Source: Allobosea sp. 117 (GTDB lineage Bacteria; Pseudomonadota; Alphaproteobacteria; Rhizobiales; Xanthobacteraceae). From it: 64,000 nucleotides of DNA. Location: the NCBI RefSeq assembly GCF_000702305.1, contig NZ_JNLC01000001.1, positions 1-64,000 of the forward strand, read 5' to 3'. The notes beneath the pieces were generated by a model. That model did no database searches. It saw only the letters and a list, made by a program, of their open reading frames with translations, and was not told where the DNA came from. Made by a program: the position numbers and the translations under genes. Positions 44,336 to 50,459 of the stretch are shown here, in pieces. Within the stretch, counting starts at the first letter, position 1. Each line of letters begins with the position of its first letter.

Positions 44336-45343
44336 GTGTCCGGATCGCTCCTCAGTTTCGCGCTGCTGCTCGACGGCCTCAAGGCGGCCGGCGAGGATAC
44401 GCGCCTGCGCCTTCTGGCGCTGATGAGCGAGGGCGAACTCACGGTCTCCGAGCTTACCGACATTCTCGGCCAGTCGCAGCCTCGGATTTCGCGCCATCTC
44501 AAGCTTCTGGCCGAGGCGGGGCTGGTCGAGCGGTTCCGCGAGGCGAGCTGGGTGTTCTACCGCCGTGCCACCGACGCGCCCGGCGCCGCGCTCACCGACG
44601 CCCTGATCGCGCTCATGGATTTCGACGATCCCGTGCTCGCCCGCGACCGTGAGCGGCTCGCCGAGGTGCGCGCCGCCCGCGCCGCCCATGCGCAGGCCTA
44701 TTTCCGCGCCCATGCCCATGAGTGGGACGCCATCCGCCGCCTGCACGTGCCGGAGGCGGAGGTCGAGAGCGCCATCCAGAAGATACTGCAAGGCGTTGAA
44801 ATCTCGTCGCTCCTCGATCTCGGCACCGGCACGGGCCGCATCCTCGAATTATTCGCTGGCGAGATCGAGCGCGGCGTCGGCATCGATCTGTCGGCCGACA
44901 TGCTGGCCGTCGCCCGCGCCAATCTGGAGCGCGCGGGAGCCCGGAACTGTACGGTGCGGCAGGGGGATATCTACAATCTCGCGCTGCCGCGCGACGCCTT
45001 CGATGTGGTGATCGTGCATCAGGTGCTGCATTTCCTCGAGGATGCACCGCGCGCTTTGAGAGAAGCGGCGCGGGTGCTCCGGCCCGGCGGGCGGCTGCTG
45101 GTGGTCGATTTCGCGCCGCATGACCTCGAATTCCTGCGCGAGGAGCAGGCGCATCGCCGCCTCGGCTTCGCGCCGGAGACCGTCGAGGGCTGGCTCGCCG
45201 GCGCCGGGCTGGCGCCGCAGGCGTATCGACAGCTCGCCCCGCAGGCGGACGGCAAGCTCACCGTCTCGCTCTGGCTCGCCCGCGATCCGCGCATTCTTCT
45301 CGCCGAAGGCGAAAACACCAATAAGCATAAGGAGGTCGCCTGA
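44336..45343 (+). CDS. ArsR-family regulator fused to SAM-dependent methyltransferase domain
   Basis: The 335-residue protein has an N-terminal winged helix (about 8-95, GELTVSELTDILGQSQPRISRHLKLLAEAGLV) and a C-terminal class I methyltransferase domain (about 140-300, SLLDLGTGTGRILELFAG; GGRLLVVDFAPHDLEFLREE). There is no Cys metal site in the HTH part. Placed 1 nt into metF (TGATG overlap) and near metH, it probably senses SAM or S-adenosylhomocysteine through the methyltransferase fold, like SahR-type regulators (inference). The start is GTG at 44336. Catalytic activity may be absent. Confidence 0.9.
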   Translation: MSGSLLSFALLLDGLKAAGEDTRLRLLALMSEGELTVSELTDILGQSQPRISRHLKLLAEAGLVERFREASWVFYRRATDAPGAALTDALIALMDFDDPVLARDRERLAEVRAARAAHAQAYFRAHAHEWDAIRRLHVPEAEVESAIQKILQGVEISSLLDLGTGTGRILELFAGEIERGVGIDLSADMLAVARANLERAGARNCTVRQGDIYNLALPRDAFDVVIVHQVLHFLEDAPRALREAARVLRPGGRLLVVDFAPHDLEFLREEQAHRRLGFAPETVEGWLAGAGLAPQAYRQLAPQADGKLTVSLWLARDPRILLAEGENTNKHKEVA

Positions 45344-46260
45344 TGTCGTCCGAGGTGGAGCGCCGCAGCCGCCGGAGTGGCGGGCGGCCGATATCCGTGT
45401 CCTTCGAGTTCTTCCCGCCGAAGACGCCGGAGATGGAGGCGACTCTGTGGAATTCGGTGACGCGGCTCGCACCGCTGGCGCCGAAATTCGTCTCGGTCAC
45501 CTACGGCGCCGGCGGCTCGACGCGCGAGCGCACCCACGCCACGGTCGAGCGGATCGTGAAGGAGACGCGCCTCGCTCCCGCCGCCCATCTGACCTGCGTC
45601 GCCGCCTCGAAAGCAGAGGTCGACGAGGTGGTACGCGGCTATTGGGATGCCGGCGTGCGCCATATCGTGGCGCTGCGCGGCGATCCGCCGGGCGGCGTCG
45701 GCCATGCCTATGAGCCGCACCCGCAGGGCTACCGGACCTCGGCCGATCTGGTGGCCGGCCTGCGGCACATCGCCAATTTCGAGGTGTCGGTCTCGGCCTA
45801 TCCGGAAAAGCATCCCGAAAGCCCGTCCTTCGACACCGATCTCGACATCCTCGCCGCCAAGGTCGAGGCCGGCGCGAGCCGGGCGATCACCCAGTGCTTC
45901 TTCGATAACGACCTCTATTTCCGCTATCTCGACAAGGTGCAGGCGCGCGGCATTGACGTGCCGGTGGTGCCGGGCATCCTGCCGGTGAGCAATTTCAAGC
46001 AGGCGAGGAACTTCGCTGAGAAGACCGGCACTTATATGCCGGCCTGGCTTGCCGGGCGGTTCGAGGGGCTCGACGACGATCCCGAGACGCGCAAGCTGAT
46101 CGCGGCGGCGGTCGCGGCCGAGCAAGTGTTCGACCTCGTCGACCGCGGCGTGACGGAGTTCCACTTCTACACGCTGAACCGCGCCGACCTCGTCTACGCG
46201 ATCTGCCACCTGCTCGGCGTGCGCCCGCCGCTCGCCGTGGAGGGGCAGGCAGCGGCGTGA
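45343..46260 (+). CDS. metF: 5,10-methylenetetrahydrofolate reductase
   Basis: MetF makes 5-methyl-THF, the methyl donor for MetH. The 305-residue TIM-barrel flavoprotein has SFEFFPPKTPEME near residue 20 (catalytic Glu), VSVTYGAGGSTRERT near 51, HLTCV near 81, RHIVALRGDPP near 106 and QCFFDNDLYFRYLDK near 186. A textbook AAGGAGGT precedes the ATG. It overlaps the regulator stop by 1 nt, so the pair is an operon. Confidence 0.97.
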   Translation: MSSEVERRSRRSGGRPISVSFEFFPPKTPEMEATLWNSVTRLAPLAPKFVSVTYGAGGSTRERTHATVERIVKETRLAPAAHLTCVAASKAEVDEVVRGYWDAGVRHIVALRGDPPGGVGHAYEPHPQGYRTSADLVAGLRHIANFEVSVSAYPEKHPESPSFDTDLDILAAKVEAGASRAITQCFFDNDLYFRYLDKVQARGIDVPVVPGILPVSNFKQARNFAEKTGTYMPAWLAGRFEGLDDDPETRKLIAAAVAAEQVFDLVDRGVTEFHFYTLNRADLVYAICHLLGVRPPLAVEGQAAA

Positions 46261-46270
46261 GGGTCTAGGT

Positions 46271-46305
46271 CCCCTCACCCCAACCCTCTCCCCGACGGGC
46301 AGAGG
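46271..46305. repeat. 35-bp direct repeat, left flank of the DUF559 gene
   Basis: It starts CCCCTCACCC and matches 46665-46699 at 32 of 35 positions. Its first ten bases also pair perfectly with GGGTGAGGGG at 46321-46330, forming the arms of a larger hairpin that ends 3 nt before the DUF559 start codon. Confidence 0.85.
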
Positions 46306-46333
46306 TCGGCTCGAAGAGCCGGGTGAGGGGGCG

Positions 46334-46705
46334 TTGAGCGATCGAATTGAGAGAGCCAGACGTCTGCGCCGAGACCAGACGGAAGTCGAACAGCTCCTCC
46401 GGTCGCATCTTCGGGATCGGCGGCTGGACGGTTGGAAGTTTCGACGGCAAGCACCAATTGACTGCTTCTTCGTCGACTTCCTCTGCCCCGACGCCAAACT
46501 GGTGATCGAACTCGACGGTGGCCAGCATACCGACGAGAACGACGCTGAAAGGACACGGATGATCGAAGCCTGTGGCTATCTGGTCATCCGTTTCTGGAAT
46601 AACGACGTACTGACGAACATAGACGGCGTTCTACTGCGCATTCTTGAGAACCTGCGCGGTGGCACCCCTCACCCCCACCCTCTCCCCGTCGGGGAGAGGG
46701 AGTAG
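46334..46705 (+). CDS. DUF559 endonuclease-like protein in a repeat-bounded cassette
   Basis: This 123-residue DUF559 protein is distantly related to Vsr and other PD-(D/E)XK nucleases. The N-terminus [39 protein letters not shown] is typical. The putative catalytic core is [21 protein letters not shown] (Asp, then E-x-D-G-x-Q-H), then [13 protein letters not shown]. Start is TTG at 46334, with GGTGAGGGGG from the left repeat as the only Shine-Dalgarno-like sequence. The last ~14 codons ([12 protein letters not shown]) are encoded by the right repeat. It splits metF from metH. The biological role of DUF559 is not established. Confidence 0.85.
46665..46700. repeat. 35-bp direct repeat with perfect hairpin, right flank of the DUF559 gene
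   Basis: It matches the left copy at 46271-46305. It contains a perfect 10-bp stem CCCTCTCCCC/GGGGAGAGGG with loop GTC at 46678-46700. It lies inside the DUF559 3' coding end and terminates 19 nt before the metH start. Confidence 0.85.
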
Positions 46706-46718
46706 AAAGTGCTCCGCC

Positions 46719-50459
<3,741 letters not shown>

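What the first reader, a model, noticed from the sequence alone, without database searches (positions are those of the whole stretch)
46261..46718. Repeat-bounded DUF559 cassette inserted between metF and metH
A DUF559 gene sits between 35-bp direct repeats (32/35 identical) that start 394 bp apart. Removing one repeat unit would leave a 64-nt metF-metH spacer. The left repeat forms a hairpin with GGGTGAGGGG and supplies the only Shine-Dalgarno-like sequence for the TTG start. The right repeat is itself a perfect hairpin and encodes the C-terminal tail [15 protein letters not shown]559 is related to PD-(D/E)XK nucleases such as Vsr. From memory, many DUF559 proteins elsewhere end in the same PHPxPLPxGE tail, implying repeat and gene travel together, much like REP sequences with RAYT transposases. 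This could be a small, undescribed mobile or repeat-propagating unit.
Basis: partly seen in the sequence, partly recalled or inferred. Interest (0 to 1): 0.75.

Follow-up and report, generated by a model that had tools for sequence, protein, structure and literature searches.

The report
Nuclease gene between Box C repeats
A small bacterial nuclease gene of unknown role sits between two inward-facing copies of an old orphan DNA repeat (Box C), the two go together in many bacterial groups, and so the nuclease is a strong candidate for the enzyme that keeps or spreads these repeats.

Summary
But this is not a direct-repeat cassette: the DUF559 gene lies between INWARD-facing hairpin repeats that match E. 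coli Box C/PIT/TM, a triplex-forming orphan repeat (PMC4666352). In related genomes, inverted repeats flank 75 of 86 high-scoring DUF559 genes but 0 of 29 low-scoring ones; in a broad set 61 of 76 loci, against 0 of 152 control positions. Genome-wide copy number follows the repeat flavour beside the resident nuclease. Flavour follows the protein clade even at unrelated sites (61 of 75, 19.5 expected). Head and stem co-vary, keeping triplex symmetry. E. coli ycjD is DUF559 with Box C on its 3' side. No RAYT-type transposase was found in the genus; 21 found elsewhere lack these repeats. Here the insertion is one old, inherited, often decaying site, not a recent jump. Best reading: a RAYT-like system in which a Vsr/homing-type nuclease partners Box C. 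The partnership is well supported; recognition, cutting and spreading are inferred.

The parts
45343..46260 (+). metF (upstream neighbour)
   Evidence: Pfam PF02219 E 8e-93
46271..46280 (+). outward-facing head CCCCTCACCC of the left repeat (extra in this genome)
   Evidence: not attached to the left hairpin in G013, G014, G016, G001
46284..46305 (.). central hairpin of the left Box C unit
46306..46330 (-). hairpin linker plus inward-facing head GGGTGAGGGG of the left Box C unit; also the purine-rich stretch before the TTG start
46334..46705 (+). DUF559 nuclease gene (TTG start), the only DUF559 found in this genome
   Evidence: dN/dS median 0.14 over 11 genus copies
46665..46700 (+). right Box C unit, short-linker type: inward head 46665-46674, hairpin arms 46678-46687 and 46691-46700; overlaps the 3' end of the gene and encodes its tail
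46719..50459 (+). metH (downstream neighbour)
   Evidence: Pfam domains

Best explanation
The DUF559 gene is the resident nuclease of a Box C repeat family. It occupies the spacer of an inverted pair of Box C units whose heads face the gene. It acts in trans on cognate Box C units, which can fold into hairpin and (by their symmetry) intrastrand triplex structures, and it nicks or cuts them so that Box C units or pairs are copied to new intergenic sites. The gene itself does not multiply and is inherited vertically for long periods. This works like the REPIN-RAYT system but with a Vsr/homing-endonuclease-type nuclease instead of a tyrosine transposase. Shown: the flanking architecture, co-occurrence, flavour matching, co-variation of head and stem, purifying selection on the gene, presence/absence of a Box C pair at one orthologous E. 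coli site. Inferred: recognition of Box C by the protein, cleavage, copying.
Against: No binding, cleavage or transposition was shown. Outside the genus, 8 of 34 genomes without high-scoring or partial DUF559 hold 3 or more repeats and 5 of 37 with it hold fewer than 3. Within the genus, copy numbers overlap widely (median 17 in 18 carriers, 10 in 12 others; counts). The window's own genome has only 2 strict copies beyond the flanking ones. E. coli ycjD has no recognisable unit on its 5' side. The Nitrospinota, Daviesbacteria and Legionella loci of the broad set scored below the cut. No target-site duplication or clean boundary was seen at the E. coli hrpB-mrcB site. Solo pairs are head-to-head in some genomes and tail-to-tail in others, e.g. 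G079. Flavours were defined after seeing the loci, F2 and F4 patterns partly overlap, and genomes are not phylogenetically independent.
Confidence: 0.6

Rival explanations
1. Host-serving nuclease: DUF559 is a repair or structure-processing enzyme (Vsr-like) that recognises triplex/hairpin DNA; Box C units are its binding or regulatory sites and persist for the host, without being spread by it.
For: The DUF559-containing protein VsrA of Caulobacter is needed for the SOS response of cells lacking the cytosine methylase ScmA and is proposed to do mismatch repair (PMC12907096, passages); fold like Vsr; dN/dS 0.14; long vertical inheritance at metF-metH.
Against: At this site the gene is uninterrupted in only 11 of 30 genus genomes and 12 more hold remnants; in 2012 of 5375 matched E. 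coli genomes no place covers 80% of the 1.8-kb ycjD region; several DUF559 paralogues per genome with different repeat flavours fit a selfish pairing better.
Confidence: 0.2
2. Homing-endonuclease-like element: the nuclease cuts empty Box C pairs at the head-to-head junction and the gene copies itself in by recombination, so the gene is the mobile part.
Against: No near-identical gene copies within a genome among those compared: 75 paralogue pairs, mean identity 0.475, maximum 0.72, whereas repeats reach dozens of copies; in the genus the gene stays at one site.
Confidence: 0.13
3. Box C is mobilised by another enzyme (RAYT/TIRYT) and DUF559 is a passenger. TIRs of TIRYT transposases share the motif GGGGWSAS (PMC3733652), which GGGGTGAG fits.
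For: Motif resemblance only.
Against: Y1 transposase in 16 of 101 genomes, none in the genus; 0 of 21 Y1 loci carry Box C-like units within the roughly 1.5 kb fetched on each side.
Confidence: 0.05
4. Chance or shared hot spots: DUF559 and Box C merely collect in the same permissive intergenic sites.
For: One intergenic site holds different repeat families in different species, so hot spots exist.
Against: Inward orientation, flavour matching, and Box C heads beside only 1 of 28 genes of another small nuclease family, GIY-YIG.
Confidence: 0.02

Closest known systems
REP/REPIN-RAYT systems (REPtrons)
   Same: Small gene flanked by inverted REPs; enzyme and repeat co-vary; cognate repeat abundance follows the enzyme; gene evolves faster than a neighbour; repeats often in inverted pairs (features as in the abstracts of PMC2817692 and PMC3116915).
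   Different: Enzyme is a DUF559 nuclease of the PD-(D/E)XK/Vsr kind, not a Y1 HUH transposase; repeat lacks the GTAG tag and is built as a triplex motif.
Box C / PIT / TM_ECO intrastrand triplex repeats of E. coli and over 260 other genomes
   Same: Same sequence plan, including inverted pairs of two types (PMC4666352; outline, passages, sections 15 and 18 and part of Table 1 seen).
   Different: That paper reports no link to mobile elements or gene classes; its main text has no occurrence of nuclease, DUF or Vsr. The resident nuclease is the addition here.
Vsr and EDxHD homing endonucleases (I-Bth0305I); Caulobacter VsrA
   Same: Fold; VsrA contains DUF559 (PMC12907096, passages).
   Different: Flanking repeat partnership; no mismatch-repair or homing activity tested here.
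CGTC-tagged REPs
   Same: Orphan REP class of mainly Alphaproteobacteria said to lack a dedicated transposase (PMC3733652 abstract).
   Different: Other sequence; appears to go with GIY-YIG nucleases instead (partial test).

Membership tests
Box C / PIT / TM triplex repeat | Y-arm, loop, R-arm, short linker, third strand (CCCTCTCCC..GGGAGAGGG-3 nt-GGGTGAGGG) | tested here: met
   Right unit on the minus strand CCCTCTCCCC-GAC-GGGGAGAGGG-TGG-GGGTGAGGGG
Box C / PIT / TM triplex repeat | Head and stem keep mirror symmetry (triplex-capable) | tested here: met
   129 of 138 short-linker units 8/8; 48% with stems permuted, 24.7% between different stems
Box C / PIT / TM triplex repeat | Triplex formed in solution | not testable with these tools
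   Reported for the E. coli motif in PMC4666352 (abstract), not for this copy
REP-RAYT system | Gene flanked by two inverted REPs | tested here: met
   both nearest units inward in 58 of 86 and 44 of 76 loci, 0 of 152 controls
REP-RAYT system | Enzyme is a Y1 (HUH) tyrosine transposase | tested here: not met
   Protein is DUF559, Vsr/homing fold; no PF01797 match in the 30 genus genomes
REP-RAYT system | GTAG tag at the repeat | tested here: not met
   Window units read directly: head is GGGTGAGGGG
REP-RAYT system | Enzyme and repeat co-vary | tested here: met
REP-RAYT system | Cognate repeat abundance follows the enzyme | tested here: met
   across genera; weak inside the own genus (same call)
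REP-RAYT system | Enzyme gene evolves faster than neighbours | tested here: met
   One neighbour tested. In the 10 other genus genomes with an uninterrupted copy DUF559 is 70-81% identical to the window's, the metH N-terminus 84-94%
REP-RAYT system | Repeats shown to transpose | not testable with these tools
   Only presence/absence at one E. coli site
EDxHD homing endonuclease | EDxHD/Vsr-type catalytic fold and residues | tested here: met
EDxHD homing endonuclease | Gene copies itself into cognate empty sites | tested here: inconclusive
   No near-identical paralogues (maximum identity 0.72 in 75 pairs); no direct test
Vsr mismatch endonuclease | T:G mismatch nicking in methylated motifs | not testable with these tools
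Insertion sequence / transposon | Recent insertion with near-identical copies and target-site duplication | tested here: not met
   One DUF559 in this genome, a single old site in the genus; no duplication seen at one E. coli Box C pair

The most novel reading that the evidence does not exclude
Box C and DUF559 form a second, ancient, cross-phylum class of repeat-propagating system whose enzyme reads an intrastrand DNA triplex rather than a simple hairpin. With RAYT-GTAG and (tentatively) GIY-YIG-CGTC it shows a general rule: unrelated small nucleases have each acquired their own REP family and drive it in trans.
Probability: 0.4. Interest if true: 0.92.

Novelty: new variant of a known kind. 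Interest (0 to 1): 0.8.

Why it matters
Box C has been an orphan repeat since the 1990s, seen in E. coli and hundreds of genomes, tied to genome instability but, in the paper seen, to no gene. DUF559 is a widespread family whose Pfam entry is still 'unknown function'. Pairing them turns two open questions into one set of ordinary tests in E. coli K-12. If spreading is confirmed, REP propagation is not a RAYT speciality but something several nuclease families do, possibly by reading DNA triplexes.

Tried and rejected
Direct-repeat excision cassette: rejected, since the repeats form an inverted, inward-facing pair and the direct identity comes from an extra head in this genome. Recent mobility in this genus: rejected. 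RAYT as the partner: rejected for this genus, unsupported elsewhere. MITE derived from the DUF559 element by internal deletion: looked at by eye only, no shared interior sequence noticed.

Faulty or uninformative versions: one search printed about ten loci on the wrong strand (a tie in my strand test); orientation was recounted. One search allowed one mismatch and so confused head with stem, and its downstream edge in the broad set was misplaced; replaced. Mirror-symmetry test: one search mixed two unit types (8/8 in 0.404 observed, 0.145 control), fixed the register and gave no excess (0.701 observed, 0.726 permuted); lets the register vary equally in data and control.

Grouping: high-scoring (E <= 6.5e-24, about full length: 87, of which 86 had enough flank), low-scoring (E >= 2.8e-20: 29), partial (14). 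The lists were written after one search had shown the flank scores, though they follow the Pfam values. Six weak or partial places were not fetched (G062:C91, G050:C251, G090:C12, G039:C31, G040:C39, G096:C30). In one search two of 77 loci had no flavour and were dropped; four of 80 loci had too little flank; two of 30.

Full report
WHAT IS THERE. The window holds metF (45343-46260), a 123-aa TTG-start ORF (46334-46705) and metH (from 46719). The ORF is Pfam DUF559 (E 2e-38) and is the only DUF559 found in the 4.64-Mb genome. The 35-nt repeats at 46271 and 46665 are as described. The genus is that of Ancylobacter tetraedralis: same-genus genome G004 has a contig of 547,928 bases with DUF559 at the same place as the record with that title.

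ANATOMY. Reading the flanks of 30 DUF559 loci side by side suggests a rule with few exceptions (L015 is one): the gene is preceded by [hairpin ... GGGTGAGGGG] and followed by [CCCCTCACCC ... hairpin], or by other flavours of the same plan, so the conserved head of each repeat faces the gene. In this genus the left unit has a small hairpin between head and stem and the right unit a 3-nt linker. The right unit supplies the C-terminal tail; such tails occur in 35 of 74 broad ORFs and 30 of 86 related ones, 1 of 29 low-scoring DUF559.

IS IT MORE THAN CHANCE. In 101 genomes of genus, family and order, DUF559 was found in 66. I used 130 places. An inverted repeat shared by the two 200-nt flanks (score 14 or more) is present in 75 of 86 high-scoring, about full-length DUF559 genes and 0 of 29 low-scoring ones, which act as an internal control. 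A wider set of 80 loci came from GTDB contigs; 76 had enough flank: 61 positive, against 0 of 152 control positions in the same loci. Positive loci include Alpha-, Beta- and Gammaproteobacteria, Desulfobacterales, a Rickettsiales single-cell genome and records titled Chloroflexi, Kuenenia and Gastranaerophilales; the Nitrospinota, Daviesbacteria and Legionella loci scored 9, 11 and 8. Many are metagenome bins, so single labels may be wrong. These 80 are the best matches to the query, not a random sample. The nearest recognised unit faces inward in 136 flanks, outward in 6 and is missing in 30 in relatives; 104, 12 and 36 in the broad set; 1 unit in 304 control flanks.

FLAVOURS AND COPY NUMBER. 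The repeat differs between loci but mostly agrees on the two sides of a gene: F1 CCCTCACCC/CCTCTCCC, F2 CCCCACCC/ACCCTCCCC, F4 CCCCCTCCC/CCCTCCCCC and others. Three flavours were counted in the same 101 genomes; the reversed pattern, as control, gave one match in all three searches together. With DUF559-flanking copies removed, the medians for genomes with a DUF559 of that flavour, with DUF559 of other flavours only, and with none are F1 20 (n 39), 1.5 (n 16), 0 (n 46); F2 11 (21), 0 (34), 0 (46); F4 8 (15), 0 (40), 0 (46). Outside the genus, 32 of 37 genomes with DUF559 and 8 of 34 without hold 3 or more copies. Exceptions exist both ways: G100 has 27 F1 copies and no DUF559 match; G078, G081 and G087 have DUF559 and no further copies of these patterns. 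Inside the genus the numbers overlap (median 17 in 18 carriers, 10 in 12 others, from the listing). Flavours were defined after reading the loci, and a one-mismatch F2 match also catches some F4 units.

FLAVOUR FOLLOWS THE PROTEIN, NOT THE PLACE. Among 77 loci in 38 genomes (own genus represented by G000 only), repeats are more like those of the nearest protein relative in another genome than like those of the own paralogues in 48 of 57 cases; Mantel rho 0.22, 0 of 999 permutations as high. Leaving out pairs with homologous neighbours, the nearest protein relative has the same flavour in 61 of 75, 19.5 expected. Within-genome paralogues are old: mean identity 0.475, maximum 0.72 in 75 pairs. 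So the repeats multiply while the gene does not, as described for RAYTs and unlike insertion sequences.

THE REPEAT IS BOX C. A literature search by sequence (30 of 71 papers listed) led to PMC4666352, which describes Box C/PIT/TM_ECO, an intrastrand triplex repeat with 23 copies in E. coli MG1655, two types that pair in inverted order, and presence in more than 260 genomes (outline, passages, sections 15 and 18 and part of Table 1 read). The right unit of the window fits it on the minus strand. The paper finds no link with mobile elements or gene classes. Its motif 9 lies between fabI and ycjD, and ycjD is annotated DUF559. The MG1655 sequence shows ycjD ending in a decayed Box C unit (...NRRSPSP-stop), with the intact motif about 170 nt further on; on its 5' side there is an unrelated palindrome and no unit that I recognise. 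Across flavours, head and stem change together so that triplex mirror symmetry is kept: 129 of 138 units (found in 354 flanks) match 8 of 8, against 48% (at most 57%) with stems permuted and 24.7% between different stems (two earlier forms of the test were mixed or wrong in register). This points to the triplex-capable form, not only the hairpin, as what is conserved.

HISTORY OF THIS COPY. In 30 genomes of the genus the metF-metH spacer holds an uninterrupted DUF559 in 11, a split or truncated one in 7 (G002, G003, G007, G008, G015, G021, G026), a small remnant in 2 (G025, G029), only the right repeat in 3 (G019, G023, G028) and neither in 7. metF-DUF559-metH also occurs in G034, G056 and G058. 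The intact copies are under purifying selection (dN/dS median 0.14, range 0.06-0.35, 55 pairs, median dS 1.21), and the protein changes faster than its neighbour metH (70-81% against 84-94% identity in the same ten genomes). So it is an old, selected, but dispensable gene at one site.

DISPERSAL. A solo pair of the own genome (L005) has, read by eye, counterparts at the same spot in G006, G027, G016 and G004 and remnants in G003 and G024, while many others carry a different repeat type there. In E. coli the hrpB-mrcB spacer has a full head-to-head pair in MG1655 and an O157:H7 strain, a single hairpin in an O26:H11 strain, and no Box C in two others; the empty form shows no simple target duplication. 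A place covering at least 80% of the ycjD region exists in 3363 of 5375 genomes with a match; in DSM 30083 and APEC37 efflux genes stand beside fabI or sapF instead.

RIVALS. A RAYT partner was not found in this genus and is unsupported elsewhere (0 of 21). Homing by the gene itself is possible from the fold but does not fit the lack of similar paralogues. A host-serving repair role is the strongest rival and is not exclusive with the partnership.

NOVELTY. I found no report of the DUF559-Box C link in searches by family name (14 papers, titles and abstract openings, plus passages of one), by REP/RAYT and nuclease terms, by repeat sequence and by ycjD/Box C. Several listings were capped (30 of 71, 20 of 35, 15 of 350 and 15 of 30), and the library holds open-licence papers only. 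The kind (REP plus partner enzyme) is known, as PMC2817692 (abstract) sets out: inverted flanking REPs, co-evolution, abundance following the enzyme, fast evolution. All four are met here with a different enzyme and a different repeat, hence 'new variant of a known kind'.

Noticed in passing
L348-L377 (GIY-YIG loci): Small GIY-YIG nuclease genes show a parallel pattern: 18 of 28 have inverted repeats in their flanks (1 of 28 control positions), 12 of 28 have CGTCAT/ATGACG on both sides (about 0.27 expected per side); Box C heads near 1 of 28. They may be the partner of the CGTC REPs that are said to lack a transposase (PMC3733652).
   Followed up: partly
L300-L329, intergenic site of L005: By eye, the same intergenic spot carries Box C pairs in some species of the genus and CGTC-type or other palindromic repeats in others: a repeat hot spot with turnover.
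   Followed up: partly
L029, L032, L076, L087, L095, L097, L102; L037, L081, L083, L085, L104, L106: DUF559 with its repeats recurs at the same spacers in several genera; the neighbouring gene starts look by eye like pheS-pheT and glyQ-glyS (gene names recalled, not searched). Synteny clusters.
   Followed up: partly
L010 (G071): DUF559 lies between two stretches that match different parts of metH (aa 140-353 and 361-400), as if inside or between parts of a split metH.
   Followed up: no
metF-metH spacer of G006, G009, G010, G018, G028 and others: A small unrelated ORF (starting MSEPDN..) stands between metF and metH, with or without DUF559 beside it (read by eye).
   Followed up: no
L278:6980-8700: Downstream of E. 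coli ycjD a stretch repeats part of the gene's 3' end, followed by a degraded repeat, as if an element end had been duplicated.
   Followed up: no
G079: Solo Box C pairs listed there are mostly tail-to-tail with a nearly constant start-to-start spacing of 113-116 nt, a MITE-like family, unlike the mostly head-to-head pairs of G070.
   Followed up: no
L333 (E. coli APEC37) and L332 (DSM 30083): Where K-12 has ycjD between sapF and fabI, these strains have efflux-transporter genes beside sapF or fabI.
   Followed up: no
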